A stretch of 64,000 nt of DNA from Chloroflexia bacterium SDU3-3 (GTDB taxonomy: Bacteria; Chloroflexota; Chloroflexia; Chloroflexales; Roseiflexaceae): assembly GCA_009268125.1 (NCBI GenBank), contig WBOU01000001.1, forward strand, positions 248,001-312,000, read 5' to 3'. Shown here piece by piece: positions 25,219-50,315 of this stretch. The translations under genes were made by a program, and so were the position numbers. Each line of letters starts with the position of its first letter. The stretch's first letter is position 1. The notes under the pieces were generated by a model. The model was not told the DNA's origin, did not search any database, and saw only the letters and a list, made by a program, of their open reading frames with translations.

Positions 25219-30336
<5,118 letters not shown>

Positions 30337-33400: not shown

Positions 33401-33594
33401 TGGCGCTGGACCTGTTCAACGAGAGCGAGCGCGAGCAGTACCGGCGCGATATCGACGCGCTGGAGGCCCGCCTGGCCCAGATCCCCGCCGAGCGCGCGCA
33501 GGAGACCGAGGCCATCGAGCGGCGCTACGCGGGCATCCAGCACCGGCTGTTCCCGCTCGCGGTGGTATTCCTAGTGCCTCGGCGGATGGCGTAG
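30415..33594 (+). CDS. drmD: DISARM SNF2-like helicase DrmD
   Basis: 1059 residues. An SF2 Snf2/RapA-like translocase: motif I DDVGLGKTIEAG near 142, motif II DEAHN near 258, motif III LTATPHNG near 293, then the C-terminal RecA lobe with FTEYRDTQNWL near 527, ATDAASEGIDLQ near 586 and QRNGRIDRHGQ near 615. The last 300 residues are Ala/Arg/Glu-rich and helical. In class 1 DISARM this gene goes with the adenine methylase, as here. The spacing to drmMI (78 bases) fits one operon. About 340 bases with palindromic repeats follow it, a likely break in the operon. Confidence 0.88.
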   Translation: MIAASLPEQGQLVEVRRRRYVVAEVQGSQQPVGALAPEALRPQHMVTLASIEDDALGEELQVIWELEPGARVLDQQALPAPEGFDDPARLDAFLHAVRWGAASSADVRALQSPFRSGIAIEDYQLDPVVRAIQMPRANLLIADDVGLGKTIEAGLVAQELIIRHRARRILIICPSALQIQWRDQMREKFGLEFRIVDSELMRTLRRSRGIHVNPWGHFPRLITSIDYLKRDQPMRLFRETLPVGGHTYPRTYDLLIVDEAHNVAPSGVGRYAKDSLRTEAIRTLAPHFEHKLFLTATPHNGYAESFSSLLELLDNQRFARGVPPDRSVLRRVMVRRLKSELKVHWSGRALFPARELQHIEVAYAEAERAAHRQLQAYTALRQQDSQDAAERTATEFVLKLLKKRLLSSPAAFAATLEKHLASLEGAQHPERRAARRTPLGILRAMVADIEDAAGDGESDERLEEVVHTSSRLFRPTTAQEQALLDALRTWAEGARRRPDAKARTLLDWLGQIVRPGGAWSDERVIIFTEYRDTQNWLFDLLAAEGLTASGRTMRLSGGMADDERERVKAAFQASPDESAVRILLATDAASEGIDLQRHCYRLVHYEIPWNPNRMEQRNGRIDRHGQQHNPQIFHFAPQGFDAASIRPDVAVGQLEGDLEFLMRAVQKVEQIREDLGKVGPVIADQVTDAMLGRRQRLDTAQAERDAEPTRRMLVFERKLDDQIRKLYEQLQESRHTLQLTPEHVQAVVEIALDLAGQPPLREAALPGVWPDPGGARRRCPVFHLPPLQGSWAACAEGLEHPHTRALRPIVFDHELAKGRDDVVLAHLNHRLVQMALRLLRAEVWNTASHQRHLHRVAARTIPDHLASAPLALIYGRLVVIGGDSARLHEEIIVAGGEIQQGRLRRLNVGQVQETLDAMGDAQPAPAVRDDLARAWPAVADAARAALDARAEDRAASLLRLLAERRAKEAADIQQVLDELDRAIRAELDDEHRPVQLALDLFNESEREQYRRDIDALEARLAQIPAERAQETEAIERRYAGIQHRLFPLAVVFLVPRRMA

Positions 33595-33933: not shown

Positions 33934-35396
33934 ATGGATGCCACCACCCAGATCATCATCATCGCCGCCGCCAGCGCCGCCGGAGCAGCCATCCTGATCA
34001 CCGCCCTGATCGCATGGGCCATCGCCGCCGCCCGAGGCCGCCGCCTGCGCGCCCAGATCGCCCAGCAGACCGAGCGCGCCACCCAGGCCGAGACCGCCCT
34101 AGCCGAGGCCACAGCCAGCATCGCCACGCTCACCGAGCGTGCATCCGCCAGCGCCGAGCGCGCCGACAAAGCCGAGGCCACCCTGAGCGAGCCCAGCAGA
34201 GCATCACCGCCCACGCCGAGCGCGCCGCCAAGGCCGAGACCGCGCTGGAGCGCGAGCAGACCGCCCTGGCCGAGGCCCAGCGGAACGAGCAGCGCATGGC
34301 CGACACCTTCGCCCGCCTGAGCGGCGAGGCCCTGCGCGCCAGCGCCGACCAGCTCTTCCAGCGCGCCGAGCAGCAGTTCCGCAGCCACCAGCAGCTCGCC
34401 CACAGCGACCTCAGCGCCCTGATCGACCCCATGCGCCAGCAGCTCGCCCAGCAGGAGCAGAGCATCCAGGCGCTGGAGGCCAGCCGCCAGCAGGCCTACG
34501 GCAGCATCGAGGCCCAGCTGCGCCAGATGGCCGATGGGCAGCAGAGCCTGACCGCCGCCACCCACAGCCTGACCACCGCCCTGCGCCACCCCGGCGTGCG
34601 CGGGCGCTGGGGCGAGCTCCAGCTGCGCCAGGTGGTCGAGGCCGCTGGCATGAGCGACCTGTGCGACTTCAGCGAGCAGCAGACCATCACCACCGACGAT
34701 GGCACGCGCCAGCGGCCCGACATGGTGATCAAGCTGCCCAACGGGCGCGCGGTCATCGTCGACGCCAAGGTTCCGCTCGACGCCTACCTCGCCGCGCTCG
34801 ACGAGCCAGACGAGGCCAAGCGCCCCGCACTGCTGGCCCGCCACGCCGCCCAGGTGCGCGCGCACGTGGACGCCATGGGCAGCCGCGACTACCAGCGCAG
34901 CCTCGATAGCTCGCACGACTTCGTGGTGCTGTTCATCCCCGGCGAGGTCTTCTACAGCGCCGCGCTGGAGCACGACAGCACGCTGCTGGAGCATGCCATG
35001 GCCAAGAGCGTCATCCTGGCCAACCCCGCCACCCTGATCGGCCTGCTCAAGGCCGTGGCCACCGGCTGGCGCGAGGCCCGGCTCTCCGAAGAGGCCCACA
35101 CCATCAAGACCGAGGGCGAAAACATCTACAAGGCACTCAAGACCGTGGCCGAGCACATGGGCAAGGTCGGCAAGGGGCTGCAAAAATCCGTCGAGGCGTA
35201 CAATAGCGCCATCGGCAGCCTTGAGGGGCGGCTGCTGCCCAGCGCCCGCCGCATGCAGGCGCTCAAGATCAGCGACGAGCAGATCGCCACGCCAGCCCCC
35301 ATCGAGCAGCACCCCCGCCCCATCACCCGCGCCGAGCTGCTGCCCGCCCCCGAGGCTACGCCCAACGATGAGGATGGGCAGGCGCTCACCGCCTAG
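33934..35396 (+). pseudogene. rmuC: RmuC-family protein, frameshifted
   Basis: RmuC-type protein (restricts DNA rearrangement; PD-(D/E)xK-like fold). An N-terminal membrane helix (about 8-30) and a long Ala/Glu/Arg coiled coil are read in one frame from 33934. From about 34185-34200 the sensible frame is one base earlier, where ERAAKAETALEREQTALAEA and the RmuC domain continue (RGRWGELQLRQVVEAAGM, DMVIKLPNGRAVIVDAKVPL) to the stop at 35396. One missing base near 34190 explains this. No slippery heptamer is seen, so real decay or a sequence error is likelier than programmed frameshifting. Without the shift the product would be about 487 residues, normal for RmuC. Confidence 0.85.
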
Positions 35397-35778: not shown

Positions 35779-35875
35779 GGTTGGGTCGTAGGAAATAAGG
35801 GTCGAAAAACGTCTCTCTCAACGATCCTGGGGTTTGGTGGCATATCCATCTACTCCTTTGTATGAGGACACCACA

Positions 35876-37066
35876 ATGCTTGGATCACTGTTTGGCATGA
35901 CCGTCACCCGCGAGATCCCAGCCGCCGTGCTGCACGGCCTGGTGCGCGGGCAATACACCCTCCACGGCGGCGTCATCCGCTGGGCCGCCGGGACCGCCCA
36001 GGCCGGGCAGATCGTCTGCCACCTGCTGCCAGCAGCCAACCTGCTCGCCCCGGTGGCCATGAGCGGCGCAGGCATCCTGGCCGGGGCCATCCCCGTGGTC
36101 GGCGCGATCGGCTCGGTGGTCGCCGCAGGCAGCGGCATCCTGTCGGCCATCAACACCTTCCGCATCCTCAAGGACACCAAAAACATCCTCAAGCTCTCCG
36201 AGCTGAATCTGGCCGTCACCCAGTCGGGGTTCGCCTCGATCGAGCAGCGGCTGGACAGCCTCGACCAGAAGCTCAGCGAGATCAAAGCCAGCGTCGACGC
36301 CATCCAGCGGCTGATGCAGATCGAGCAGCGCTCGGAGCTGCGGGCCGCCCTGGACGAGCTGCGCGGCATCAGCGACGTGCGCGACCCCGAGGTGCGGATC
36401 AAGGCCCTGGTGGCAGCGGCGGGCCAGCTGGCCAAGGCCGGCCTGATCTTCGAGGAGCGCGCCGCTGCCGCCGCCACCCTGCCCGTGGCCATGGCCTGCG
36501 AGGAGTACTTCTGCATCGCCGTGCTGGCCCGCGCCCGCTGCTACGCCGAGCTGCGCGAGCCGACCCGCGCCCTGGGCATCGTGCGCGACCTGGAAAAGCG
36601 CTGGCTCACGCTGGCGCGCGGCATCTCCAAGAAGTTCCTGATCGGCAGCACGCCGGGGCGGCTGTTCTACAGCGACTTCGCCAAGCTGGCCAGCGTGCCC
36701 GAGATCATCAGCTGGCTCGACTTCACCGAAGGCACCGAGAAGGGCATCGGCTGGATCGACGAGCTGCGCACCGCGATGGAGCCGTGGTACTATACCCGCA
36801 CGCCCGAGACCTACGCCTCGTGGCGGCGCATCCGCAACCAGGCCGATATCGACGAGCACCTCCAGCTCCACGAGGCGATCATCCTGCCCGCGCTGCGCAA
36901 GCTGACCGCCCGCGCCGAGGTGCTGTGCAACTACATCGGCCAGTTCGAGCTGATGGAGGCCCACCGCCTGACCGCGCAGGAGTTCGAGGACGCGCTGCGC
37001 AGCGTGGACAAAGCCGACACGGTGGATGACTTTATCATCCTGCGCTCGCCCACGCTGGCGGTGTAG
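35876..37066 (+). CDS. Unrecognised protein with hydrophobic hairpin and coiled coil
   Basis: 396 residues. Residues about 45-100 are a Gly/Ala/Val-rich hydrophobic stretch with two segments (ANLLAPVAMSGAGILAG and AIPVVGAIGSVVAAGSGI) that could insert in a membrane as a hairpin. Residues about 115-150 form a strong coiled coil (IEQRLDSLDQKLSEIKASV). The remainder is helical and charged. GAGGA precedes the ATG at 35876. It has its own promoter and palindrome inside the DISARM island, and lies between the rmuC remnant and the DUF262 gene. A membrane-acting effector is an attractive guess, but no family is recognised and no enzyme motif is visible. Confidence 0.7.
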   Translation: MLGSLFGMTVTREIPAAVLHGLVRGQYTLHGGVIRWAAGTAQAGQIVCHLLPAANLLAPVAMSGAGILAGAIPVVGAIGSVVAAGSGILSAINTFRILKDTKNILKLSELNLAVTQSGFASIEQRLDSLDQKLSEIKASVDAIQRLMQIEQRSELRAALDELRGISDVRDPEVRIKALVAAAGQLAKAGLIFEERAAAAATLPVAMACEEYFCIAVLARARCYAELREPTRALGIVRDLEKRWLTLARGISKKFLIGSTPGRLFYSDFAKLASVPEIISWLDFTEGTEKGIGWIDELRTAMEPWYYTRTPETYASWRRIRNQADIDEHLQLHEAIILPALRKLTARAEVLCNYIGQFELMEAHRLTAQEFEDALRSVDKADTVDDFIILRSPTLAV

Positions 37067-37395: not shown

Positions 37396-39489
37396 ATGAT
37401 TACCTCGCAGGATCGAGAGATCCAGTCACTCATCAACGACATCCGCGATGGCAAGCTGCTGCTGCCCGAGATGCAGCGCGGGTACGTGTGGAAAGCGCCG
37501 CAGGTGCGCAACCTCTTCGACTCGCTGTATCGCAACTACCCTAGCGGTCAACTACTTGTGTGGGAGACCGATGACCTGCCGTTCTCGCGCCAGGTGAGCG
37601 TGGAAGAGGTCGAGCATGCGCAGCGTAGGCCACAGCTCCTGCTGGATGGCCAGCAGCGGCTCACCTCGCTGGCCGCCGTGATGCTGGGAAGGCCCCTAAT
37701 AGTGCGCGACACCAAGCGCCCGATCGACATTGTATTCAACGTCTTTACCGAGCGCTTCGAGGTGGCTGGCGTGCGGCAGCGCGGCGAGACAGGCTGGATC
37801 TCAGTCTCGAAGCTGTTCACTAGCGGCCCTATGCGCGCGTTGCGCGAGGTGCGTGACGGACTGAGCGACGACGAGGAGGACAAGGTGCTGGAGCGGCTCA
37901 CGCGGCTGGATAACATCAAGAGCTACAAATACCGCGTGAACGTACTGGAAGGGATCAACTACGAAGAAGTAACCGATATTTTCGTACGTATCAACTCCGG
38001 CGGCACCATACTTAACAACGCCGATCTGGCCCTGGCTCAGATCTCGGCCCGCTGGCGCGGCGTCACGGACGAGTTCCACAAGTTCCAGTGGGGCATCTAC
38101 ACCAAGCATAGCCTCTGGCTCGACAACGGCGTCATGCTGCGCACTATGTCGCTGCTCCTCTCGAACCAGAGCAGGCTGAGCCAGTTCTTCCGTGGCGACC
38201 AGCGGCGCGTGGCTGTCGAGGACATCCCCGACGCATGGAATCGCGCCCGCAGCGGCCTGCTGACCGCCATTGAATTCCTCATCCACAACTGCAAGATCGA
38301 CCGGCTGAGCCTGCTGCCCACCAGCTACATCCTGATCACGCTCGCCGCCTTCTTCGACCGCTTCCAGCAGCAGATCACCACCGAGCAATCGCGCGACCTT
38401 CAGCGCTGGGTCTACCTGGCGCTGGCGTGGAGCCGCTACAGCAACGCCAGCGAGACCGCGCTCGATCAGGACTACGCTGCGCTCAACAAACCCAACCCAG
38501 CCAAGGCAATGATCGAGAGCCTTGAGGACAAGGTCGGGCGCGGGCGCAGCATCAGCGAGCGCGAGCTGCGCGACCAGCGCAAAAACTCGCCCTTTATGGT
38601 GCTGAGCTACGTGCTGGCGCGCGAGGCCGAGGCCCAGGACTGGTTCAACAGTGTCAAACTGGGCGGCAGCCAGCCGCTAGAGCTTCACCACATCTTCCCC
38701 AAGGCCGTGCTGGCAAAGAAATACAACCTGCGCGCCGACACGCTGATCATCGATCAGGTGGCAAATCTGGCCTTCCTCTCCAGCAAGGCAAATAATAGCA
38801 TCAGCTCGCGGCAGCCAGCGGAGTATCTTCCCAAGATCGAAGAGCGGCGGCTGCGGGCGCAGCACGTGCCAATGGACCCGGCGCTCTGGACGCTCGACCA
38901 GTTCGAGGCATTTGCGCTCCAGCGGCGCACCATGCTCGCCGATGCGCTCAACACGCTGATCGACTCGCTCTCTGATGCGCCCTCGCTAGTACGCGGGAGC
39001 GAGAAGGCCCAGCTTGAATCGCGCATCGAGGCGCTGGAGCACCAGCTGCGCGACCTGGTGGCCGACCGCCTGACCGAGGCGCGGGGCGAGGGCGCGCTGG
39101 AGCACTGCATTCCGCAGAACACGCGCCGTGGCATCGAGAGCCGCCTGCGGCAGCGCGTGGGCAAAAACCCCTTCGAGGCCGACGAGTTCCGCACGCTGGG
39201 CGATCTGCTCCAGTTCTGCCAGTTCAGCGACTACGCGCGGATCATGCGCGACAACTGGGTGCTGTTCAGCGACACGTTTGGCGAGGGCAAGAGCTTCGAC
39301 CAGCACATCGCGGCGGTGACGACGGCGCGCAACGCCTTCGCCCACAACAACCCGATCGGCAAGGCCGACCTGCTGAGCGCCGAGGCCGGGCTGATCTGGA
39401 TGGAGGACTGCCTGCGCGCCCTGGCCGACCGCGAGGAGCCGGAGGCCGAGGACGAAGACATCCTGGCCGAGGCCGCCGAAGTGGCGTAG
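37396..39489 (+). CDS. DUF262/HNH protein with C-terminal HEPN-like domain
   Basis: 697 residues. The N-terminal DUF262 domain (GmrS-like, ParB-like nucleotide-binding fold) shows QRGYVW near 28, LDGQQRLTSL near 84 and FVRINSGG near 195. A DUF1524-type HNH nuclease lies near 430-465 (LHHIFPKAVL, then NLAFLSSKANNSI). After a coiled segment (535-560), the last 120 residues look like a Swt1/HEPN domain with ARNAFAHNN near 645, which fits the R-x4-H RNase signature. DUF262/HNH proteins of the GmrSD group cut modified phage DNA. Having an RNase-like tail too suggests a two-way effector. It lies 87 bases before the next defence gene. Confidence 0.85.
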   Translation: MITSQDREIQSLINDIRDGKLLLPEMQRGYVWKAPQVRNLFDSLYRNYPSGQLLVWETDDLPFSRQVSVEEVEHAQRRPQLLLDGQQRLTSLAAVMLGRPLIVRDTKRPIDIVFNVFTERFEVAGVRQRGETGWISVSKLFTSGPMRALREVRDGLSDDEEDKVLERLTRLDNIKSYKYRVNVLEGINYEEVTDIFVRINSGGTILNNADLALAQISARWRGVTDEFHKFQWGIYTKHSLWLDNGVMLRTMSLLLSNQSRLSQFFRGDQRRVAVEDIPDAWNRARSGLLTAIEFLIHNCKIDRLSLLPTSYILITLAAFFDRFQQQITTEQSRDLQRWVYLALAWSRYSNASETALDQDYAALNKPNPAKAMIESLEDKVGRGRSISERELRDQRKNSPFMVLSYVLAREAEAQDWFNSVKLGGSQPLELHHIFPKAVLAKKYNLRADTLIIDQVANLAFLSSKANNSISSRQPAEYLPKIEERRLRAQHVPMDPALWTLDQFEAFALQRRTMLADALNTLIDSLSDAPSLVRGSEKAQLESRIEALEHQLRDLVADRLTEARGEGALEHCIPQNTRRGIESRLRQRVGKNPFEADEFRTLGDLLQFCQFSDYARIMRDNWVLFSDTFGEGKSFDQHIAAVTTARNAFAHNNPIGKADLLSAEAGLIWMEDCLRALADREEPEAEDEDILAEAAEVA

Positions 39490-39576
39490 CGCGACAAACC
39501 GCGCGGGGCGGCAAGCGGCGATGCCTCCCCGCGCGCATCCCACCATTCGCACGCATGCTGGCTGGGGAATTAGCTC

Positions 39577-42500
39577 ATGGAAACAGGAACCATAGCCACC
39601 GACCAAATCATAGCCAACCGCATCGAAGATACCCGCCGACGGCTCCTCGACCTTACACGGCGAAACCGCCTGCTTAACCACCGCACCAAAGGCCGCGCAA
39701 CCCTTGGCATCACCAAGGAAATCTCGGCGGAAATCTTCCGGCTCCTCGTTGCCGAGGCCCAGACACTCCAGTTTCTGTCCCGCGAAGAGGCACCCAAGGG
39801 TGTTCTGATCGCCCAGGATGATGACTACGCAGTGAGCGATGATTCTGCGGCCAGCTTCAAGCTTGCGCCTATCGACGCCAAACAGCGCGCCAGCTACCAC
39901 ACCGACAGAAACCTCCAGACCGCGCTGAGCGGCGAATATCTCCAGGCGCGACTGCTCTACCTCGCTCGACAGGCTGAGAGCGCCCGCGAGGAGCAGGGGT
40001 GCAACGTGCTGTTCCTCACGCTGGGCATGGTCGAGTGGCGCGAGCGCGAGCAGAGCGAGCCTTCGCGCGCGCCGCTGATCTTCATCCCGGTCGATCTTCA
40101 ACGCCGCACGGTGCGGAACCGCCACCACATCCAGCGCTATGAGGATGATATCCTGATCAACCCCTGCCTGATCGAGCTGTGCCGCCGTGTGTTCCACTTC
40201 GATCTTCCCACGGTCGAGATCGACGAGACGCTGGATGTGGGAGGATACTTCAGGCAGATCGAAGCGGCACTCGCAGGAATTCCCGGCTGGAACGTGCTGC
40301 CCAATGAGATCCACGTGGGTATCTTCAGCTTCGCCAAACTGCTGATGTACCGCGACCTCGACCACACCACATGGCCCACCCAGCAGGTGCTCACCGCGCA
40401 TCCGCTCATCCGCCAGCTGCTCGGCTGCGGTGACCGGGATTCCCAGCCCGCAGCCTTCCCCTATGCCAACATGCTGGATGAGACCATCCCGCCCGCCCAA
40501 AACTACCAGGTGCTTGACGCCGACTCAAGCCAGCAGGTCGCCATCCAGGCGGTAAAGCAGGGTCTGAGTATGGTGATCGAGGGTCCGCCCGGCACCGGCA
40601 AATCGCAAACGATCACCAATATCATCGCCGAGTGCCTAGCTATAGGCAAAAGCGTGCTGTTCGTCGCCGAGAAATCGGCGGCGCTCTCGGTGGTGAAACG
40701 GCGGCTTGAGGCGGTGGGACTGGGGGCCTATGTGCTGGAGCTACATAGCAACAAGACCAGCAAGCGCATTGTGCTGGATGAGCTACAGCGCACCCTAGAG
40801 AGCTACGAGGACAATATCAGTGTGCCGCGAGCCGACCCGCAGCAGCTCGCCGAGCGGCGAGCGCGGCTTAACGCCTATGCCCAAGCGCTCCACCAGCCGC
40901 TCGGTGCACTGGGCATCACGCCGCACGAGGCCACGCTACACTGCATCGCGCTGCGCGATGTGCCCGAGGCCAGCATCCGCATCGATACGCCGCTCCAATG
41001 GGATCGAGCCGCGCTTGATATGGCCCGCGAGCGCATCACTACCTTCGACCGCTGGCGGCGGCGGGTGGGCGACCCCAGCACCCACCAGTGGCGGCATATT
41101 GGCCTCGACCACATCGACACACTCGCCCGCCAAGAACTACAGCAGCTGCTTGCCGAGATTGTCGCTAGCGTCACCTCGCTGCAAGCCGTGCTGGGGCAGG
41201 CGAGTGCTCTGCTGGCGCTGCCGCTTGCGCCAAGCGGGGCCAGCGCACGGGTCGCGCTCGACCGCCTCACGTTGCTGCTCGCCCTACCCGATCTAGACGT
41301 AGGCATGATTGAGGATGAACGATGGGAAGGATCTGCTGAGGCACTCGATAGCTGGGTGGCGCAGGGGCAGCAATACCAGCAGCAGCGCACCCACCTGATG
41401 GAGGCGTTCATCCCCGAGGCGCTGGAGCAGGACTGGAGCCACATGCTGCTGCGCCGCCAGCAGCACGCCGCATCGCTCGGGCATCGGCTCCTCCCCGACC
41501 CATTTGAAGATAGCATCCTCCAGTGGCTCTTCCCCGACTGGCGGGCCGATTCCGAGCAGCTGCGCCGCTTCCTGAAGCCCGACATCGCCCCAAGCATCGA
41601 GGAGCAGATCGCGCTGCTGACTCAAATAGGCGAACATGTGGCTGAGGGCCAGCAGATCCAAGCGCGCAGCGCAGATCTGGCCCCGCTGTTCCGCAGCCAC
41701 TGGCAGGGGATCGACGCAAGCTGGGAAACCATCAACGCGACGCTCCAGGCGGTACGCACGGCGCGCGCATATGTCCGCGCTGGCACGCTGGATGTGCGGG
41801 TCGCCGCCTTGGTTCTTTCTGGCGGTGGTCGCGCGCAGGCCACAACCCTGTGCGAGGCGCTTCAGCACGCGCTAGGCCGTACCGATGCTGCGTTCTGCGC
41901 ATGGTGTGAGCGCACCAGCACCAGTGACCGCGACTGGCTCGGCGGCTACTGGGAGCAGGGCGCGCTGGGCGATACCCACGCGCAGTTCGCCCATCTGCTC
42001 GGCGCATTCCCAGCGCTCGATGACTGGGTCGCCTACCGCCACGCCCAGGGGCAGCTCGCGCAGCACCTGCCCGCCTTCCTCGCCTGGGCCGAGCGCGCCG
42101 CGCCCGCAGCCGAGGTTGATCTGGCCGATTGCTTCGAGCGCCAGTTCTACCACATCTGGCTCGATGCGGCGCGACAGGAGCGCCCCGCGCTCGCAGGGTT
42201 CCGTGGCGAGGAGCATGAGACGCAGATCCAGGCGTTTATCGGCGACGACCAGCGCTGGATCGCGATCAACCGCCAGCGCGTCGCGGCGGCTGTGCATAGC
42301 CGTAAGCCAAATGTGCTTCAGGCGCTCCACCCGCAGTCCAAGCTCGGCATCCTCAAGACCGAGATAAAAAAGAAGCGGCGCAATATGGCGCTGCGCGCGC
42401 TCTTCACCAAGACGAACGACGCGCTCCAGTCGCTCAAACCGTGCTTTATGATGAGCCCGATCTCCATCGCCCAATATCTCGCGCCGGGCACGATCAGCTT

Positions 42501-44388
42501 CGACGTGGTAATTTTCGATGAGGCCAGCCAGGTCGAGCCTGCCGACGCCTATGGCGCGATCGCGCGCGGTCGCCAGCTTATCCTGGTGGGCGACGAGAAG
42601 CAGCTTCCTCCCACCAGCTTCTTCTCGAAGATCGAGAGCGACGACGGGCGCGAGAGCGAGGAGAACGAGAGCGCCGATCTGGAAAGCGTGCTCTCGCTCG
42701 GGATGGTGCAGCTGCCCCACCAGTGCTCGCTGCGCTGGCACTACCGCAGCCGCCACCAGAGCCTGATCGAGTTCTCAAATCAGCAGTTCTATGATGGGAA
42801 ACTTCAGGTCTTCCCCGGCCCTTACACCAGCACCAGCACCTATGGGCTGAGTTTCTGCCATGTCGCCGACGGCGTCTATATGCGCGGCGCAGGCCAGAAC
42901 AACCCAGCCGAGGCCCGCGCCATTGCGGCGGCAGTGCGCGAGCACGCGCTTGCAAGCCCCGAGCTGAGCCTGGGAATCGGCGCATTCAGCGTGGCGCAGC
43001 AGCGCGCCATTGAGGACGAAATTGAGCAGATGCGGCTGGATGCCACCGACCCGCGCATCGAGAGATTCTTCCTTCAGCAGACCCACGAGCCATTCTTTGT
43101 CAAGAACTTAGAAACTATTCAGGGCGACGAGCGCGATGTTATCCTGCTGAGTGTGGGCTATGGGCCAGACAGCACAGGCAGGGTGGCCATGAACTTTGGC
43201 CCGCTCAATCGAGATGGCGGTTGGCGACGGCTCAACGTGCTGGTCACCCGCGCCCGCCAGCGCTGCATCCTGTTCAGCTCCATCCGGGCCGAGCAGATCA
43301 ACCTCGACGCCACACGGGCGCGCGGCGTAGCCGCCCTAAAAAGCTACCTGGCCCTCGCCGAGCACGGCGAGCACCGCAGCCAGCGCGCCGCAGCCGAGCC
43401 GCACCCGCTCTACGCGGTCATTCGGCAGGCGCTCGAATCGCACGGCTGGCAGAGCCACGAGCAGGTGGGCACCAGCAGATCGTATGTCGATATCGCCGTC
43501 ATCGACCCCATAGCACCCGACCGCTATGTGCTGGGGATCGAGACCGATGGTGAGATCTATGGCCGCTCCGCCACCGCACGCGACCGCGAGCGGCTGCGCG
43601 ATAGCGTGCTGGCCCAGCTTGGCTGGCGGCTCTGCCGCACCTGGGCGATGGATTGGCTCTACCGCCCCGAGCACGCCCAGAAGCAGATCCTTGCAATCCT
43701 AACGGGTGAAGCTACCGTACCAAGCCAGCCTACCACCGAAGGCGCAAAACCCGAGCCAGATCTACCACCCAACGAAACAAACTCGGCGGGAATTGCCACC
43801 ACGCGCCTCACGATAGACGACACATCAAGCGGCGCGGTGCATGTCATCCCCTACGCCAGCTCTTCATTCCGCCAGCCCTCGTGGTCACACACCTTCGAGC
43901 TGACCCCGACAGCAGCATTAGCCGATATCATCGTCCAGATCGTGCTGGATGAGTCACCAATCCACGAGGAAGAGGTGCAGCGTGTGGTCGCAGCATTCTT
44001 CCACACTCGCGCCTCTAAGCGCATCCAGGATGTGTGTAGCCGCATTCTCCCCGCCCTAGCCCGCGATGGCCGCATTCGACAGCAGGGGCTATTCCTTTGG
44101 GCACCTGCCATGGAGGATGCGCCGATTCGGGCCAGAGCCGACACATGCCCCGTGCTCAAGCCCGAGCTGATTGCGCCCGAGGAGCTACAGGCAGCCGTGC
44201 GCCAAGTGCTGCGCGAGCAATTTGGCCTTCAGCGCGACGCACTGATCACCAGCACCTCGCGCCTGCTCGGCTTCCGGCGCTGCGGGTCGGCGCTTGAGCA
44301 GGCCATCAGCACTGCGGTTGAAGCCTTGATCGCCAACGGCTCGCTTGTACGCGATGGGCAGGGGTTTCTGACCCTCACCTCATCATAA
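39577..44388 (+). CDS. DUF4011 / SF1 helicase / nuclease / DUF3320 protein
   Basis: 1603 residues. Order: DUF4011 N-terminus (RRLLDLTRRNRLLNHR), split SF1 helicase with Walker A GPPGTGKSQT near 336, Walker B FDEASQ near 979, VGDEKQLPPTSFF near 1005, HYRSRHQSLIEFSN near 1050, GDERDVILLS near 1183 and LVTRARQRC near 1221. Residues about 1280-1370 form a Vsr/MTES_1575-like nuclease with YVDIAVI and GIETDG as acidic motifs. A DUF3320-like segment ends the protein (ESPIHEEEVQRVVAAFF). Single proteins of this build have been reported as antiphage genes (Hhe type, from memory). Only 12 bases separate it from the next gene of the run leading into drmA. Confidence 0.87.
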   Translation: METGTIATDQIIANRIEDTRRRLLDLTRRNRLLNHRTKGRATLGITKEISAEIFRLLVAEAQTLQFLSREEAPKGVLIAQDDDYAVSDDSAASFKLAPIDAKQRASYHTDRNLQTALSGEYLQARLLYLARQAESAREEQGCNVLFLTLGMVEWREREQSEPSRAPLIFIPVDLQRRTVRNRHHIQRYEDDILINPCLIELCRRVFHFDLPTVEIDETLDVGGYFRQIEAALAGIPGWNVLPNEIHVGIFSFAKLLMYRDLDHTTWPTQQVLTAHPLIRQLLGCGDRDSQPAAFPYANMLDETIPPAQNYQVLDADSSQQVAIQAVKQGLSMVIEGPPGTGKSQTITNIIAECLAIGKSVLFVAEKSAALSVVKRRLEAVGLGAYVLELHSNKTSKRIVLDELQRTLESYEDNISVPRADPQQLAERRARLNAYAQALHQPLGALGITPHEATLHCIALRDVPEASIRIDTPLQWDRAALDMARERITTFDRWRRRVGDPSTHQWRHIGLDHIDTLARQELQQLLAEIVASVTSLQAVLGQASALLALPLAPSGASARVALDRLTLLLALPDLDVGMIEDERWEGSAEALDSWVAQGQQYQQQRTHLMEAFIPEALEQDWSHMLLRRQQHAASLGHRLLPDPFEDSILQWLFPDWRADSEQLRRFLKPDIAPSIEEQIALLTQIGEHVAEGQQIQARSADLAPLFRSHWQGIDASWETINATLQAVRTARAYVRAGTLDVRVAALVLSGGGRAQATTLCEALQHALGRTDAAFCAWCERTSTSDRDWLGGYWEQGALGDTHAQFAHLLGAFPALDDWVAYRHAQGQLAQHLPAFLAWAERAAPAAEVDLADCFERQFYHIWLDAARQERPALAGFRGEEHETQIQAFIGDDQRWIAINRQRVAAAVHSRKPNVLQALHPQSKLGILKTEIKKKRRNMALRALFTKTNDALQSLKPCFMMSPISIAQYLAPGTISFDVVIFDEASQVEPADAYGAIARGRQLILVGDEKQLPPTSFFSKIESDDGRESEENESADLESVLSLGMVQLPHQCSLRWHYRSRHQSLIEFSNQQFYDGKLQVFPGPYTSTSTYGLSFCHVADGVYMRGAGQNNPAEARAIAAAVREHALASPELSLGIGAFSVAQQRAIEDEIEQMRLDATDPRIERFFLQQTHEPFFVKNLETIQGDERDVILLSVGYGPDSTGRVAMNFGPLNRDGGWRRLNVLVTRARQRCILFSSIRAEQINLDATRARGVAALKSYLALAEHGEHRSQRAAAEPHPLYAVIRQALESHGWQSHEQVGTSRSYVDIAVIDPIAPDRYVLGIETDGEIYGRSATARDRERLRDSVLAQLGWRLCRTWAMDWLYRPEHAQKQILAILTGEATVPSQPTTEGAKPEPDLPPNETNSAGIATTRLTIDDTSSGAVHVIPYASSSFRQPSWSHTFELTPTAALADIIVQIVLDESPIHEEEVQRVVAAFFHTRASKRIQDVCSRILPALARDGRIRQQGLFLWAPAMEDAPIRARADTCPVLKPELIAPEELQAAVRQVLREQFGLQRDALITSTSRLLGFRRCGSALEQAISTAVEALIANGSLVRDGQGFLTLTSS

Positions 44389-44400
44389 CGAGAACCCACT

Positions 44401-46485
44401 ATGGCCGCATACGAGCTCTCATTCACGCCCACCTTCTACAACGAGTCGCTCAACGTGCCACGGCACGTGAGCAAGAGCATCACGCAGAAGCTCAAAGTGC
44501 TGGAGGGCGACCCGATCTCAGCCCTGGGCGACGCCAAGAAGATCAAGGGCTACGCCAATGTCTACCGCGTGCGCGTGGGCGACTACCGTGTGTTCTACAG
44601 CGTGGGCCAGGGCTGGGTGAAGCTGCTGAGCGTGCGCAAGCGCGACGAGCGCACCTACGCCGACGAGCTGCCCGCCGCGCCCGCGCCCGCCGCTGCCCCC
44701 GATGCGGCGGCGCTGGCCCCCCACGCCGAGGCCGCGCCGCCCGTCTACACGCCGCCCGCCTATGTGCCGCCGCCTGCGGCCAGCGCCCCGCTGCCCTACG
44801 CCCTCACCCCCGAGCTGCTGGCCCAGTGGCGCATCCCCGAGGATCACTGGCCCGCCGTGCTGCGGGTGCGCACCGAGGACGACCTGCTCGATCTGTCCAT
44901 CCCCGAGCGCTACGTCAGCCGCCTGCTCGACACCATGTTCCCGCGCGCCCTGGAGGCCATCGCCACCCAGCCCGAATACCGGCTGGCCCAGGCCGAGGAT
45001 GTGGCGCTGTTCGAGACCGAGGATCTGGGCGCGTTCCTGCTCAAGCTCTCGCCCGAGCAGGCCGCGCTGGTGGCCCAGCAGCGGCGCGGCCCCACGCTGG
45101 TGAAGGGCGGCCCCGGCACAGGCAAATCGACCCTGGCGCTCTACCGCGTGCGCCATCTGATCGAGCGCGGCGTCGGCCCCATCCTGTTCACCACCTACAC
45201 CAACGCGCTGGTCAGCTACTCCGAGCAGCTGCTGGCCCAGCTGCTGGGCCGCGACCCCGCCGCGTGCGGCGTGAAGGTCGGCACCGTCGACGCGCAGGCC
45301 ATGCACTACTACGCCAAGGCGCACGGCTGGGCCAACTTTGCCACCGACGGCCAGATCGAGGCCTGCCTGACCACGGCGCTCGCAGAGGCCGAGATCCCGG
45401 CGGCCAACGTCTTCGACCGCCAGGTGCGCCAGCAGGCCCTGGCGCGGCTGGGCAGCGCCTACATCCTGCAAGAGTTCAATGATGTGCTGCTGGCCTGGGG
45501 CGTGGAGCGAGCCGACGACTACGTGGCCATGGAGCGGCGCGGGCGGCGCACCCCGCTCAAGGCCAGCACCCGCGAGGCGCTGTGGGCCGTCTACACGCGC
45601 TGGCGCGAGCTGATGGCAGCGCAGCGGCTCGTCACCACCGCCATCGTGCGGCTGGAGGCGCTGGCCGTGGCCCGCGCGCTGCCCGCCAAGCCCTACCAGG
45701 CCCTGATCATCGACGAGGCCCAGGATCTGCCGCCGGTGGCCATCCGCCTGCTGTGCGCCCTGGTCGCCACCCCCGACCACCTCTACCTCACCGCCGACGC
45801 CGCCCAGTCGATCTACCAGCGCGGCTTCAGCTGGCGGCAGATCCACGCCGACCTGACCATGGCCGGGCGCACCCTAGTGCTGCGCAAGAACTACCGCAAC
45901 ACCGCCCAGATCGCCGCCGCCTGCGCCAGCATCCTCGACGCCGAGGTAGCGGGCGACGCCGAGAGCATCCAGCAGGAGCTGTCGCCCATCCTGGGCGAGC
46001 CGCCGCGCATCCAGCTGGTGGCCAGCGAGCGCGAGGAGGTCGAGGCCGTGCGGGCCTTTCTGGTGGATGCGGCCCGCCACTACCGCCTGCCGATCTTCAC
46101 CGGCGCAGTGCTGTGCCAGGGCCAGCGCACCGGACAGCAGCTGGCCCAGCGCCTCACCGCGCTCGGCATCCCCGCCGTGTTTCAGAGCGGCAAGCAGATC
46201 GACATCACCGTCCGCCAGGTCAAAGTGCTGACCATCCACTCGGCCAAGGGGCTGGAGTTCCCCTTTGTGGCCGTGGTGGGGCTGGATGCCGGGCGGCTGC
46301 CCCGCCAAGACGACGACCTGCCCGCCGAGGAGCAGGCCGCCGCCGACGAGGCCCAGCGCCGCCTGTTCTTCGTGGGCAGCTCGCGGGCCATGCGGGCGCT
46401 GCTGATATGCGGCAGCCGCCAGACACCCTCGCCCTTCCTCGACGCGCTCACGCCGCCGCTCTGGGAGCGAAAGGACCACCTATGA
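44401..46485 (+). CDS. RelE-like domain fused to a UvrD-like helicase
   Basis: 694 residues. Residues 1-88 look like a RelE/ParE toxin fold (FYNESLNVPRHVSKSITQKL, then KIKGYANVYRVRVGDYRVFY and LLSVRKRDERTY). A Pro/Ala-rich linker (90-135) joins it to an SF1A helicase: GGPGTGKST near 237, IIDEAQDLPP near 437, LRKNYRNT near 497, TIHSAKGLEF near 615, and FVGSSRAMRALL near the end. The stop overlaps the drmA start as ATGA, so the two are translated together. The helicase may unwind or load on phage DNA with DISARM; the role of the toxin-like part is open. Confidence 0.87.
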   Translation: MAAYELSFTPTFYNESLNVPRHVSKSITQKLKVLEGDPISALGDAKKIKGYANVYRVRVGDYRVFYSVGQGWVKLLSVRKRDERTYADELPAAPAPAAAPDAAALAPHAEAAPPVYTPPAYVPPPAASAPLPYALTPELLAQWRIPEDHWPAVLRVRTEDDLLDLSIPERYVSRLLDTMFPRALEAIATQPEYRLAQAEDVALFETEDLGAFLLKLSPEQAALVAQQRRGPTLVKGGPGTGKSTLALYRVRHLIERGVGPILFTTYTNALVSYSEQLLAQLLGRDPAACGVKVGTVDAQAMHYYAKAHGWANFATDGQIEACLTTALAEAEIPAANVFDRQVRQQALARLGSAYILQEFNDVLLAWGVERADDYVAMERRGRRTPLKASTREALWAVYTRWRELMAAQRLVTTAIVRLEALAVARALPAKPYQALIIDEAQDLPPVAIRLLCALVATPDHLYLTADAAQSIYQRGFSWRQIHADLTMAGRTLVLRKNYRNTAQIAAACASILDAEVAGDAESIQQELSPILGEPPRIQLVASEREEVEAVRAFLVDAARHYRLPIFTGAVLCQGQRTGQQLAQRLTALGIPAVFQSGKQIDITVRQVKVLTIHSAKGLEFPFVAVVGLDAGRLPRQDDDLPAEEQAAADEAQRRLFFVGSSRAMRALLICGSRQTPSPFLDALTPPLWERKDHL

Positions 46486-49400
46486 TCGCCACCATGAGGC
46501 TCGCCGCCATCCTCCCGCAGGGCCAGGGCGCGCTCAACACCATCGGCGTGCAGCTGGCCCAGCGCCGCGTGCGGCTGGACTGCAGCGATGTGCCGGAGCT
46601 TGACCCGGCCCAGCTCGAATTTCTGCTGGCCGCCATCCCCGCCGACTGGGACTTTCTCGAACTCGATGAGGTGATCGATACCCAAACGCTTAGCCCTGGG
46701 CTGGCCGCGCAGCTCTTGTCCTGGGTGCACCGCCGCGCCGGTCGCGCCCTGCCCGCAACGCCCCTGCCGCCCAGCCCGCCCACCCAGCCGCCCCACCCAG
46801 CCCCGCCCGTCGCCATCCTGCGCGAGCGCCTAGAGCAGCTGGTGATCGCCGACCTGCTCGGCCCCAGCGGCGGCCCCGAGGAGATCATCGACGAGCGCAC
46901 GGTGCGCGGGCGCTACATGGTGGGCATCCTAGCCCCGCGCAGCCAGAGCCGCCTGCCCGAGGAGCACGATGAGGATGCCCCCGCCGAGGACGGCGGCGAG
47001 GACGGACAGCCCGAGGCCGCGCCATCCAAGGCCAGCACCGCCGCCATGCTGCCCTCCTCCATCGGCATGACCTTCACCATCGACGAGCAGGCCAGCGCCA
47101 TCCAGGTAGCGGCCAGCTGGGGCCGCTACGAGCGCGCCAGCATCGAGGAGGATCGCTTCCGCAACAAGGACGGCAGCTACCGGCGCGTCTGGCGGCGCGT
47201 GCCCATGGCAGGCCGCTCGGGGCGCATCCCGCTGCGCGAGGGCAAGATCGAGACATGGACGCCGCACCCCGACGCGCCGCAGGTGGTAGTCGAGGGCCGC
47301 ATGCGCCGCCGTGGCGGAAACTGGATCGTCACGCTGTTCCTGGTGAACGGGCAGGATGAGCCAGCCAAGCAGAAAGATAGCGCCTGGGTATTTCAGCCCG
47401 AGCTGCGCGTGGCCGCCCCCGATGGCGCGGCCATCTTCCAGCGCCGCCAGACGCCGCCCGCCCCCAGCGACGCGGCGGAGCGCCAGGAGGAGCGCCAGAT
47501 GGCCATGCGCTACCGCAACTATGTCGAGTTCGCCGTTGGGCATGGTGTCTCGGTCGACGCCCAGCTGGCCGAGGGCGCGGTCGACCGCGCCACCGCCGTG
47601 TGGACCAGCGTGGTGCCCGCCTACGAGGTGCCGCAGACCACCCCGCCCACCGCCAAGGACATCCCTGCGCTGGCCACGCTCACGCTCGACATGCAGGCCC
47701 TGGCCGATCTGCCCAACGGCGCGTTCAGCGCCCACCTCGCGCCCCTGGCCGACGCCTACGAGGCCTGGATCGCGCAGCAGGATCAGCGGCGGCACTTTCC
47801 CACATCCGACCTCGCAAACTACACCGCTGAAGCGGCGGCAGCCCTACGCGACTGCCGCACCGCGCTGGAGCGCATCCGGGCGGGCATCGCGCTGCTGGAT
47901 AGCAACCCCCAGGCCGCCGACGCCTTCCGCTTCGCCAACCGCGCCATGGCGCTCCAGCGCACCCGCACGCGCTACGCCGCCGAGCGGCGGCGCGGCAGCA
48001 CCGCCGAGGTGGCCAGCTTCGATACGCCCGACACCCACTCGTGGCGCGCCTTCCAGCTCGGCTTCATCCTGATCAACCTGCCCGGACTCACCGACCCCAC
48101 CCACCCCGACCGCGCCACCCCGCAGGGCGCGCAAGCCAACCCCGCCGACGCCCTGGCCGACCTGCTGTGGTTCCCCACCGGCGGCGGCAAGACCGAGGCC
48201 TACCTGGGCCTGACCGCCTACACGCTGGGCATCCGCCGCCTGCAGGGCGTGGTGGCCGGGCGCAGCGGCCTGAGCGGCGTGGCTGTGCTGATGCGCTACA
48301 CGCTGCGCCTGCTCACGCTCCAGCAGTTCCAGCGCGCCGCCGCCCTGATCTGCGCCTGCGAGGTCATCCGCCGCGAGGCCCCCAGCCGCTGGGGCGACGA
48401 GCCGTTCCGCGTGGGGCTGTGGGTCGGCCAGCGCTCCACGCCCAACAGCATCGAGCAGGCCGAGGAGGCGGTGAAAGAGCTGAAGAAGAGCGGGCGGGCC
48501 AGCGGCAGCACGCCCCACCAGCTCACCCACTGCCCGTGGTGCGGCGAGGCCATCGTGGCCGGGCGCGACCTAGTGGTGGAATCGGCCAAGCAGGGCCGCG
48601 CCCGCGTGCTGACCTACTGCGGCAGCCTGCTCGACCAGTGCGCCTTCAACCAGCGCAGCGCCCCGGGCGAGGGCCTGCCGGTGATGGTGGTGGATGAGGA
48701 GATCTACCACCGCCTGCCATCGCTGCTGATCGCCACGGTCGACAAGTTCGCCCAGATGCCCTGGAACGGGCGCACCGCCGCGCTGTTCGGCCACGTGAGC
48801 GGCCACTGCGAGCGCCACGGCTACCTCACCCCCGACATGGAGCACGCCGAGCAGCGCCACCCGCCCGTGCGCGGCGGCCTGCCCGCCGCCCTGGTGCGCG
48901 AGGCCGCCCCGCTGCGCCCGCCGGACCTGATCATCCAGGACGAGCTGCACCTGATCAGCGGGCCGCTGGGCACCCTGGTGGGCCTCTACGAGACCGCCAT
49001 CGACCACCTGGCGAGCTGGGAGGTGGGCGGCATGCGCGTGCGGCCCAAGGTCATCGCCTCCACCGCCACCATCCGCCGCGCCGCCCAGCAGGTGCACAGC
49101 CTGTTCCTGCGCCGCGTGCAGGTCTTCCCGCCGCAGGGGCTGGATGCGGGCGACACCTTCTTCTCGATGCAGCGAGCCCCCAGCCCCGAGACGCCCGGGC
49201 GGCGCTACCTGGGCATCTGCGCCCCCGGCATCCGCCACAAGACCGCGCTCATCCAGGCCTACGTGGCCTTCCTTGCCTCGGCCCAGCAGATCGCCGAGCA
49301 GGCCGAGGCCGCCGAGGCCGACCCGTGGATGACGCTGGTGGGCTACTTCAACGCCCTGCGCGAGCTGGCCGCCATGCGCCGCGCCGTGGATGACAGCGTG

Positions 49401-50315
49401 AGCACTCGCCTGCGCCGCATGGAGCAGCGCGGCCTCACCAAGCGCTTCCTCAACCCCTGGAGCGTGCGCGAGCTGACCTCGCGCATGAGCGCCGCCGACA
49501 TCCCCGACGTGCTCAACCTGCTGGAGCTGCCCTTCACCGCCGCGCCCAAGGCGGGCAAGCCCACCCGCGCCGCCGCCGAGGGCAGGCCCATCGACGTGCT
49601 GCTGGCCACCAACATGATCTCGGTGGGCGTGGATGTCGAGCGGCTGGGCCTGATGGTGGTGGCCGGGCAGCCCAAGTCGACCGCCGAGTATATCCAGGCC
49701 ACCAGCCGCGTCGGGCGGCAGCGCCCCGGCCTGGTGGCTACCATCTACAACTGGACGCGCCCGCGCGACATGAGCCACTACGAGCGCTTTAAGCACTACC
49801 ACGCCACCTTCTACCAGTACGTCGAGGCCCTGTCGGTCACGCCCTTCTCCGCCCGCGCGCTCGACCGGGGCCTGTCGGCGGTGCTGGTGGCTATGGCGCG
49901 GCTGGGCGAGCCGCGCTACAATCCCAACGGCGGCGCGGGGCTGCTGGATGCCACACACCCCGCCGTCGCCGCCGCCCAGCAGGCGCTGGCCACGCGGGCC
50001 GCCCATATCGTGGACACGCCCGCCGGCGACCAGGTGCAGGCCGCTGCCGCCACCCGCATCGACCAGTGGCTCGACCGCATCACCCGCAGCCGGGGCGCGC
50101 GGCTCGGCTACAAGCAGCAGGGAAAAGAGGAAGTTGCCTTGCTCGGCAAGCCTGGTGGCGACTGGAATCTCTTTACCTGCCTGATGTCGCTGCGCGATGT
50201 CGAGCCGACGGTCAATCTCATTCTTGACGATGGGGGAATGGATAGATTAGATGAGCAGGCCTGGACCTTCAGCGCCAGCGACGACCCCGCCCCCGCCGAT
50301 GAGGAGGACGCCTAA
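46482..50315 (+). CDS. drmA: DISARM helicase DrmA
   Basis: 1277 residues. A large SF2-type helicase with Walker A FPTGGGKTEAYL near 563, an unusual DExH-like motif IIQDELHLI near 817, STATIRRA near 860, and a C-terminal lobe with LLATNMISVGVDVERLG near 1040 and TSRVGRQRPG near 1073. Four cysteines near 683-720 (CPWC and CGSLLDQC) may hold zinc. The N-terminal 450 residues are the long family-specific part. The start overlaps the previous stop by four bases and drmB follows after one base. DrmA with DrmB is the DISARM core that recognises and blocks incoming DNA. Confidence 0.9.
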   Translation: MIATMRLAAILPQGQGALNTIGVQLAQRRVRLDCSDVPELDPAQLEFLLAAIPADWDFLELDEVIDTQTLSPGLAAQLLSWVHRRAGRALPATPLPPSPPTQPPHPAPPVAILRERLEQLVIADLLGPSGGPEEIIDERTVRGRYMVGILAPRSQSRLPEEHDEDAPAEDGGEDGQPEAAPSKASTAAMLPSSIGMTFTIDEQASAIQVAASWGRYERASIEEDRFRNKDGSYRRVWRRVPMAGRSGRIPLREGKIETWTPHPDAPQVVVEGRMRRRGGNWIVTLFLVNGQDEPAKQKDSAWVFQPELRVAAPDGAAIFQRRQTPPAPSDAAERQEERQMAMRYRNYVEFAVGHGVSVDAQLAEGAVDRATAVWTSVVPAYEVPQTTPPTAKDIPALATLTLDMQALADLPNGAFSAHLAPLADAYEAWIAQQDQRRHFPTSDLANYTAEAAAALRDCRTALERIRAGIALLDSNPQAADAFRFANRAMALQRTRTRYAAERRRGSTAEVASFDTPDTHSWRAFQLGFILINLPGLTDPTHPDRATPQGAQANPADALADLLWFPTGGGKTEAYLGLTAYTLGIRRLQGVVAGRSGLSGVAVLMRYTLRLLTLQQFQRAAALICACEVIRREAPSRWGDEPFRVGLWVGQRSTPNSIEQAEEAVKELKKSGRASGSTPHQLTHCPWCGEAIVAGRDLVVESAKQGRARVLTYCGSLLDQCAFNQRSAPGEGLPVMVVDEEIYHRLPSLLIATVDKFAQMPWNGRTAALFGHVSGHCERHGYLTPDMEHAEQRHPPVRGGLPAALVREAAPLRPPDLIIQDELHLISGPLGTLVGLYETAIDHLASWEVGGMRVRPKVIASTATIRRAAQQVHSLFLRRVQVFPPQGLDAGDTFFSMQRAPSPETPGRRYLGICAPGIRHKTALIQAYVAFLASAQQIAEQAEAAEADPWMTLVGYFNALRELAAMRRAVDDSVSTRLRRMEQRGLTKRFLNPWSVRELTSRMSAADIPDVLNLLELPFTAAPKAGKPTRAAAEGRPIDVLLATNMISVGVDVERLGLMVVAGQPKSTAEYIQATSRVGRQRPGLVATIYNWTRPRDMSHYERFKHYHATFYQYVEALSVTPFSARALDRGLSAVLVAMARLGEPRYNPNGGAGLLDATHPAVAAAQQALATRAAHIVDTPAGDQVQAAAATRIDQWLDRITRSRGARLGYKQQGKEEVALLGKPGGDWNLFTCLMSLRDVEPTVNLILDDGGMDRLDEQAWTFSASDDPAPADEEDA

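What the first reader, a model, noticed from the sequence alone, without database searches (positions are those of the whole stretch)
44401..46485. RelE-like toxin fold fused to a UvrD-like helicase, coupled to drmA
Residues 1-88 resemble RelE/ParE and are joined by a Pro-rich linker to an SF1A helicase; the stop overlaps drmA as ATGA. A ribonuclease or gyrase-poison-like head on a helicase, in phase with DISARM, could be an abortive branch of the defence or a simple DNA-binding adaptor.
Basis: partly seen in the sequence, partly recalled or inferred. Interest (0 to 1): 0.65.

Follow-up and report, generated by a model that had tools for sequence, protein, structure and literature searches.

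The report
RelE-headed helicase in a DISARM variant
A bacterial DNA helicase carries at its front an RNA-cutting "RelE" domain whose catalytic residues have been kept across several phyla, and in many genomes it is wired into the phage-defence system DISARM, which suggests that some DISARM systems can attack RNA or translation as well as DNA.

Summary
ORF 44401-46485 (694 aa) is a RelE-type head (1-88), a Pro/Ala linker and a UvrD-type SF1A helicase, overlapping drmA by ATGA. It lies in a DISARM class 1 cluster (drmMI-like MTase, drmD, drmA, drmB; no drmC). The head is RelE-like, not ParE-like: its profile matches solved RelE, aRelE, RelG and YoeB toxins but no ParE, and R56, R63, R81 and Y86 (RelE catalytic positions) are the only invariant residues in 28 diverse heads. 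The fusion is a widespread family, with solo copies and an ARMADA II relative (ArmD, published 2025). In DISARM it recurs in four phyla, directly upstream of drmA in 13 of 25 assessable Chloroflexota loci. Every DrmA or YprA helicase just downstream (33 of 33 loci) carries an acidic ~85-residue STAS-like N-terminal domain, absent from 12 of 12 Chloroflexota DrmA without RelE-UvrD but present in four loci elsewhere without it. Best reading: an undescribed accessory subunit of a DISARM class 1 variant, in which a helicase docked on DrmA delivers a RelE-type mRNase to invaded DNA. RNase chemistry and docking are inferred. The gyrase-poison reading is disfavoured; the abortive reading is neither shown nor favoured.

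The parts
44401..44664 (+). RelE-type head (residues 1-88); R56, R58, R63, R81, Y86 at the RelE active-site positions
   Evidence: PF05016; PDB profile hits RelE/aRelE/RelG/YoeB, no ParE; invariance; AlphaFold2 topology
44665..44805 (+). Pro/Ala-rich disordered linker (residues about 89-135)
   Evidence: composition 14 Pro + 18 Ala of 47; pLDDT below 50 over residues 84-96 and 105-125
44806..46485 (+). UvrD-type SF1A helicase: Walker A GGPGTGKS 236-243, DEAQ box 437-442, motif III 465, motif IV 494, motif V 611, motif VI 658; motif IV to V only 119 residues (compact 2B region)
46482..46485 (+). ATGA overlap of the RelE-UvrD stop and the drmA start (possible translational coupling)
   Evidence: sequence
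46482..46745 (+). NT domain: acidic ~85-residue STAS-like N-terminal domain of DrmA, shared with the YprA helicases of ARMADA-like loci that follow a RelE-UvrD gene
46482..50315 (+). drmA (1277 aa)
   Evidence: NF038325 1389 bits, cut-off 950; PADLOC DrmA 1059 bits
50251..52221 (+). drmB (DUF1998/MZB); an in-frame ATG directly after the drmA stop (about 50317) is an alternative start
   Evidence: NF038324 697 bits, cut-off 240; PF09369; sequence
25219..30336 (+). MmeI/Eco57I-type adenine methyltransferase (drmMI position)
   Evidence: PF07669, PF20473, PF20466
30415..33594 (+). drmD (SNF2-like helicase)
   Evidence: NF038317 1346 bits, cut-off 610
37396..39489 (+). GmrSD-type DUF262 protein with a HEPN-like C-terminus, inside the cluster
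   Evidence: PF03235, PF07510, weak PF18731
39577..44388 (+). DUF4011 SF1 helicase with MTES_1575 nuclease (PADLOC PDC-S37; near NCBIfam ProA), 12 bp upstream of RelE-UvrD

Best explanation
Shown: the gene belongs to a widespread RelE-UvrD helicase family and is a recurrent, co-directional component of a DISARM class 1 variant, usually in the order drmD - drmMI - RelE-UvrD - drmA - drmB. Shown: the head keeps the RelE catalytic constellation, and the DrmA it precedes carries a special acidic STAS-like N-terminal domain. Inferred mechanism: DrmAB (with DrmD) loads on phage DNA. RelE-UvrD, made coupled to DrmA, docks on DrmA through that N-terminal domain and translocates on the exposed single strand. 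It thereby brings its RelE head to phage DNA that is being transcribed, where the head cuts nascent or ribosome-bound phage mRNA in place, stopping phage gene expression without first poisoning the whole cell. Docking, translocation and RNA cleavage are inferred; none is shown here.
For: Recurrence: RelE-UvrD of the window's subfamily lies next to drmA in Chloroflexota, Cyanobacteriota and Myxococcota (upstream) and in Paenibacillus (shortly after drmC). It lies directly upstream of drmA in 13 of 25 assessable Chloroflexota loci. Active site: R56, R63, R81, Y86 are the only invariant columns of 28 heads that are mostly 25-40% identical to the window's, matching E. coli RelE K52/R61/R81/Y87. 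A toxic Streptomyces RelE has the same R,R,R,R,Y set and loses toxicity as Y85H (PMC4989188). Head and helicase are equally conserved (mean entropy 1.69 and 1.68). Docking: all 33 loci with DrmA or YprA just downstream carry the NT domain; in Chloroflexota DISARM 13 have both, 12 have neither, 0 are mixed. The NT domain is acidic in 23 of 24 (mean -6.6); heads are basic in 27 of 28 (mean +6.6). The fold is UvrD with all motifs. Relative: deletion or Walker A mutation of ArmD abolishes ARMADA II defence, which is non-abortive (PMC12458937).
Against: No activity is measured. The NT domain also occurs in four loci without a nearby RelE-UvrD (L221, L223, L224, L225), and Paenibacillus DrmA lacks it, so docking is a hypothesis. 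Solo RelE-UvrD genes without any NT domain in the genome keep the same active site, so the head works without DrmA in those species. In ArmD the R81 position is His and the K52 position is Ser, so the ARMADA phenotype may not carry over. GajB, a UvrD-like defence protein, showed no helicase activity (PMC10681800), and the short motif IV-V distance may mean weak unwinding. RelE classically cuts mRNA only in the ribosomal A site; how it would be kept to phage mRNA is unproven.
Confidence: 0.45

Rival explanations
1. Abortive branch: the helicase part (or DrmA) senses phage DNA and releases an otherwise silenced RelE head, which cuts mRNA throughout the cell and stops growth. The acidic NT domain of DrmA is the antitoxin-like silencer.
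For: Intact RelE active site; acidic NT domain encoded in a coupled downstream gene, as in toxin-antitoxin pairs; no separate antitoxin gene (12-bp gap and 4-bp overlap).
Against: The tested relative ARMADA II is non-abortive with viable cells (PMC12458937). Solo copies live without any NT domain, so a free antitoxin is not needed.
Confidence: 0.2
2. Adaptor: the RelE fold is no longer an enzyme and serves as a DNA-, RNA- or protein-binding handle that couples the helicase to DrmA.
For: Opposite charges of head and NT domain; BECR folds are known without RNase activity (ParE; PMC11980606).
Against: Exactly the catalytic residues, not a surface patch, are invariant, also in solo genes lacking the NT partner.
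Confidence: 0.2
3. A general host helicase (with an RNase head, acting on transcription-replication conflicts or repair) that has been picked up repeatedly by defence islands without a DISARM-specific role.
For: Solo copies in housekeeping neighbourhoods of several species; wide family in Actinomycetota and Alphaproteobacteria.
Against: 13 of 25 DISARM loci share one fixed position and strand; NT domain on the next gene in 33 of 33; two separate DISARM clades plus an ARMADA-like one.
Confidence: 0.12
4. ParE-like gyrase poison carried by a helicase.
For: Pfam files the head under ParE_toxin PF05016, but that family also holds E. coli RelE (PMC11980606).
Against: Family profile hits only RelE/aRelE/RelG/YoeB-type structures; RNase residues, which ParE lacks (PMC11980606), are invariant.
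Confidence: 0.03

Closest known systems
ArmD of ARMADA Type II (PMC12458937; here L150:15284-17398, E. coli plasmid pPSJ-12_1)
   Same: RelE-like head fused to a UvrD/GajB-like helicase, its gene overlapping a YprA-family helicase gene by 4 bp; essential for defence in the published system
   Different: A separate clade (branch support 99); head with Ser for K52 and His for R81, HDxAYxWA motif; placed after, not before, the YprA gene; partner lacks the NT domain
DISARM class 1 (drmD, drmMI, drmA, drmB, drmC)
   Same: drmD, MmeI-type MTase, drmA, drmB in one co-directional cluster
   Different: Extra RelE-UvrD subunit and NT domain on DrmA; drmC absent; GmrSD, DUF4011 helicase-nuclease, RmuC and JukB-like genes inserted
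RelE / aRelE mRNA interferases (1wmi, 3bpq, 4v7k)
   Same: Fold, catalytic residue set
   Different: Fused to a helicase; no adjacent antitoxin gene; activity untested
GajB of Gabija
   Same: UvrD-like defence helicase; best PADLOC profile for the helicase part
   Different: No RelE head; no GajA-like partner seen in the cluster; GajB has no detected helicase activity
Schlafen group III (SLFN11, SLFN14)
   Same: Antiviral RNase head plus SF1 helicase; VIA-align lists SLFN11/14 helicases (Z about 24-27); SLFN11 senses ssDNA and hits translation (PMC11615386 abstract)
   Different: Unrelated RNase fold (general knowledge); eukaryotic; analogy of architecture only

Membership tests
DISARM class 1 | drmA helicase and drmB DUF1998 protein | tested here: met
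   NF038325 1389 bits (cut-off 950), NF038324 697 bits (cut-off 240)
DISARM class 1 | drmD SNF2 helicase | tested here: met
   NF038317 1346 bits, cut-off 610, at 30415-33594
DISARM class 1 | adenine methyltransferase drmMI | tested here: met
   Eco57I/MmeI MTase at 25219-30336; the same kind of gene stands there in annotated DISARM loci
DISARM class 1 | drmC PLD nuclease | tested here: not met
   No PLD gene seen after drmB; the next ORFs are a short glyoxalase-like protein and others (read by eye). PMC9142583 calls drmC dispensable and often missing
RelE mRNA interferase family (head) | BECR fold, b-a-a-b-b-b-a | tested here: met
   AlphaFold2 secondary structure; PDB profile hits
RelE mRNA interferase family (head) | catalytic R/K52, R/K54, R61, R81, Y87 | tested here: met
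   R56, R58, R63, R81, Y86
RelE mRNA interferase family (head) | ribosome-dependent mRNA cleavage / toxicity | not testable with these tools
   needs experiment
RelE mRNA interferase family (head) | adjacent antitoxin gene of a type II TA pair | tested here: not met
   12-bp gap upstream, 4-bp overlap downstream, no room for a small ORF between
ParE gyrase inhibitors | closer to ParE than to RelE structures | tested here: not met
   13 PDB hits at E 0.01 or better, RelE/aRelE/RelG/YoeB-type or unnamed RelE-like, none named ParE
ARMADA Type II (ArmD) | operon ArmA-ArmB-ArmC-ArmD with a YprA-type ArmC | tested here: not met
   Window has DrmA and DrmB as separate genes and drmD; helicase tree separates it from ArmD
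Gabija | GajA OLD/TOPRIM partner next to GajB | tested here: not met
   No such domain in the cluster genes

The most novel reading that the evidence does not exclude
A DNA-guided RelE: SF2 helicases of two defence systems (DISARM and an ARMADA-like one) carry the same small STAS-like dock for a helicase-borne, catalytically intact RelE mRNase, so that translation of invading DNA is cut locally. This would be a bacterial counterpart of Schlafen proteins and an RNA-targeting arm of DISARM.
Probability: 0.25. Interest if true: 0.82.

Novelty: new variant of a known kind. Interest (0 to 1): 0.55.

Why it matters
How DISARM stops phage is unsettled: its nuclease DrmC is dispensable and often missing (PMC9142583). 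A conserved RelE-type RNase on a helicase, tied by gene order and by a DrmA-borne domain to many DISARM loci, would give one branch of DISARM a concrete effector and make RNA or translation a target. The same module in ARMADA-like loci, and solo, makes the idea testable by domain swaps and point mutants.

Tried and rejected
ParE/gyrase poison: rejected on profile hits and active site. "The window protein is ArmD": rejected; the helicase tree splits the families (support 99) and the head motif differs. "NT domain strictly tied to RelE-UvrD": first supported, then weakened by L221, L223, L224 and L225, now stated as a one-way rule. A first tblastn with a mis-framed UvrD query was discarded and redone. 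Foldseek and VIA on the whole model list only helicases; that says nothing about the head, for which sequence profiles and topology were used. NT domain: no PDB fold match, weak STAS_2 only. Phage records hold no full-length homologue. Literature: among the papers found, only PMC12458937 describes a RelE-UvrD helicase.

Full report
WHAT IS THERE. The ORF at 44401-46485 (+) encodes 694 aa and overlaps drmA by ATGA. Residues 1-88 are a RelE-type domain: PF05016 at 8.5e-5, solved RelE3 3bpq at 4.4e-7. A profile of 28 family heads finds archaeal aRelE 1wmi at 6.6e-13, RelG, E. coli RelE in its ribosome complexes and YoeB, and no ParE. A Pro/Ala linker (14 P and 18 A in 47 residues; pLDDT mostly below 50) leads to a UvrD-type SF1A helicase with all motifs (Foldseek 4c2t 2e-22; VIA Z 36 to 2is6). 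Motif IV to V spans only 119 residues, so the 2B region is compact. The first-stage observation is confirmed.

SURROUNDINGS. The gene sits in one co-directional cluster of about 27 kb: MmeI/Eco57I MTase (25219-30336), drmD (30415-33594; NF038317 1346 bits), RmuC, a JukB-like gene, a GmrSD/HEPN gene, a DUF4011 helicase-nuclease (PADLOC PDC-S37), RelE-UvrD, drmA (NF038325 1389 bits) and drmB (NF038324 697 bits). That is DISARM class 1 without drmC. The GmrSD and DUF4011 genes have lower G+C (0.635 and 0.639) than drmD, RelE-UvrD and drmA (0.713-0.725), which fits a later insertion, although the MTase is also low (0.649).

IS THE LINK TO DISARM REAL? A 400-genome survey of Chloroflexota found 30 genomes with a DrmA over the cut-off. 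In 25 loci where the upstream side could be judged, 13 have RelE-UvrD directly upstream of drmA, on the same strand and usually after the MTase. The same pair occurs in cyanobacteria (L055, L057, L061, L066), Ktedonobacteria (L059, L064) and a Myxococcota/deltaproteobacterial genome (L060). In Paenibacillus it comes right after drmC (L054, L056, L058). A second context is ARMADA-like: SNF2 - MTase - RelE-UvrD - YprA helicase, as in L044, L048 and the Pseudanabaena plasmid L149, the last again with ATGA overlap. A third is solo: Chloroflexus-type genomes with lipoprotein, VWA and kinase neighbours, Roseiflexus-type genomes, and others.

FAMILY TREE. The helicase cores split into type A (E. coli ArmD, mycobacteria, Streptomyces, rhizobia) and type B (window) with 99 support. 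Within B one clade is DISARM in every member with a known context; the other mixes ARMADA-like, solo and the window's DISARM loci, so the module changed partner more than once (quick search, SH-aLRT only). Nearly all type A proteins also have a RelE-like head (hhalign 96.9%, E 1.8e-10), but with His at the R81 position and an HDxAYxWA motif. The ARMADA II protein ArmD is of this type (identified here as the fourth gene of an ARMADA II-like operon on an E. coli plasmid).

IS THE HEAD AN ENZYME? Among 28 heads that are mostly 25-40% identical to the window's, only R56, R63, R81 and Y86 are invariant, and R58 is nearly so. They align with K52, R61, R81, Y87 and K54 of E. coli RelE (E. coli roles from general knowledge, Tyr87 as catalytic residue also in PMC4989188). 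A toxic Streptomyces RelE carries the same Arg, Arg, Arg, Arg, Tyr set, and Y85H abolishes its toxicity (PMC4989188). Three DISARM loci of the Oscillochloris group (L021, L022, L040), which were not among those 28, have Phe for Y86, so a weakened head in that small group is possible. Head and helicase are equally constrained. Solo genes keep the set although their genomes have no NT domain, which speaks for catalysis rather than docking as the reason for conservation.

A DOMAIN ON THE PARTNER. DrmA residues 1-86 form a small domain not in the standard DrmA model (whose match starts at residue 114). The same domain heads the YprA helicase of the ARMADA-like loci. A profile search of all fetched DNA found it at the start of the gene just downstream of a type B RelE-UvrD in 33 of 33 loci (18 were seeds, 15 held out; counted by hand over non-redundant loci; in one, G057:C158, it is a separate small ORF). 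It is absent from the 12 Chloroflexota DrmA without RelE-UvrD (Fisher 1.9e-7, not corrected for kinship). It is STAS-like at best (PF13466 in 9 of 24 members, best 6e-5), predicted b-a-a-b-a-a-a, with no PDB fold match. It is acidic (mean -6.6) while heads are basic (mean +6.6). Exceptions: three cyanobacterial plasmid DISARM loci and one CHAT/WD40/papain cassette have the domain without RelE-UvrD nearby. The rule is therefore one-way, and the domain may dock other subunits too. Other DISARM DrmA proteins carry a different, EVE-looking N-terminus or none (by eye).

MECHANISM. Known: DrmAB loads on DNA with a 5' overhang and is autoinhibited by a trigger loop; how DISARM kills phage is open and DrmC is dispensable (PMC9142583). 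ARMADA II needs ArmD and its Walker A lysine and is non-abortive (PMC12458937). Inferred: RelE-UvrD is recruited by DrmA's N-terminal domain, moves on phage single strands and presents a RelE RNase to coupled transcription-translation there. The abortive version (silenced toxin, released on infection) remains a serious rival. The adaptor version is less likely because the catalytic residues are kept.

NOVELTY. The fusion as such is known from ARMADA II (2025 preprint). A catalytically canonical RelE-UvrD as a recurrent subunit of a DISARM class 1 variant, with a matching domain on DrmA, was not found in the open literature searched. The library held is incomplete. Rated a new variant of a known kind.

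Noticed in passing
window 37396-44388: GmrSD/HEPN gene and DUF4011-helicase-MTES_1575 nuclease inserted between drmD and RelE-UvrD, with lower G+C than drmD, RelE-UvrD and drmA; the DUF4011 protein scores 1398 bits to NCBIfam ProA, just under its cut-off of 1500.
   Followed up: partly
L071, L072, L085, L099, L114, L102 (shortly after the helicase): Type A RelE-UvrD directly followed by a GmrSD-type gene in Actinomycetota and in Herpetosiphon giganteus (716 bits to the window's GmrSD): a recurrent two-gene pair.
   Followed up: no
L221:2644-14230 (G057:C20): Cassette of CHAT-SIR2, WD40 repeats, a DEAD helicase with the NT domain, and a papain-like protease: the NT domain without RelE-UvrD.
   Followed up: partly
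L210 and L211, 6365-19999: Ktedonobacteria with RelE-UvrD divergent from a YprA - SNF2 - MTase (ARMADA I-like) operon.
   Followed up: no
L197:5692-7779: DISARM locus without RelE-UvrD in which a 695-aa protein with weak Schlafen-g3-like helicase matches takes the place directly upstream of drmA.
   Followed up: no
L226:9584 and L227:9632: DrmA of Deinococcus and Microvirga plasmids has an EVE-looking N-terminal extension where other loci have the NT domain or none: a variable slot.
   Followed up: no
window 34014-35396 and 35834-37066: RmuC and a JukB-like protein (PADLOC JukB 1.2e-17) inside the same co-directional cluster.
   Followed up: no
L034:8719-10103 (G052): Remnant of a RelE-UvrD DISARM locus: a RelE fragment, a drmB C-terminal fragment and a PLD fragment.
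   Followed up: no
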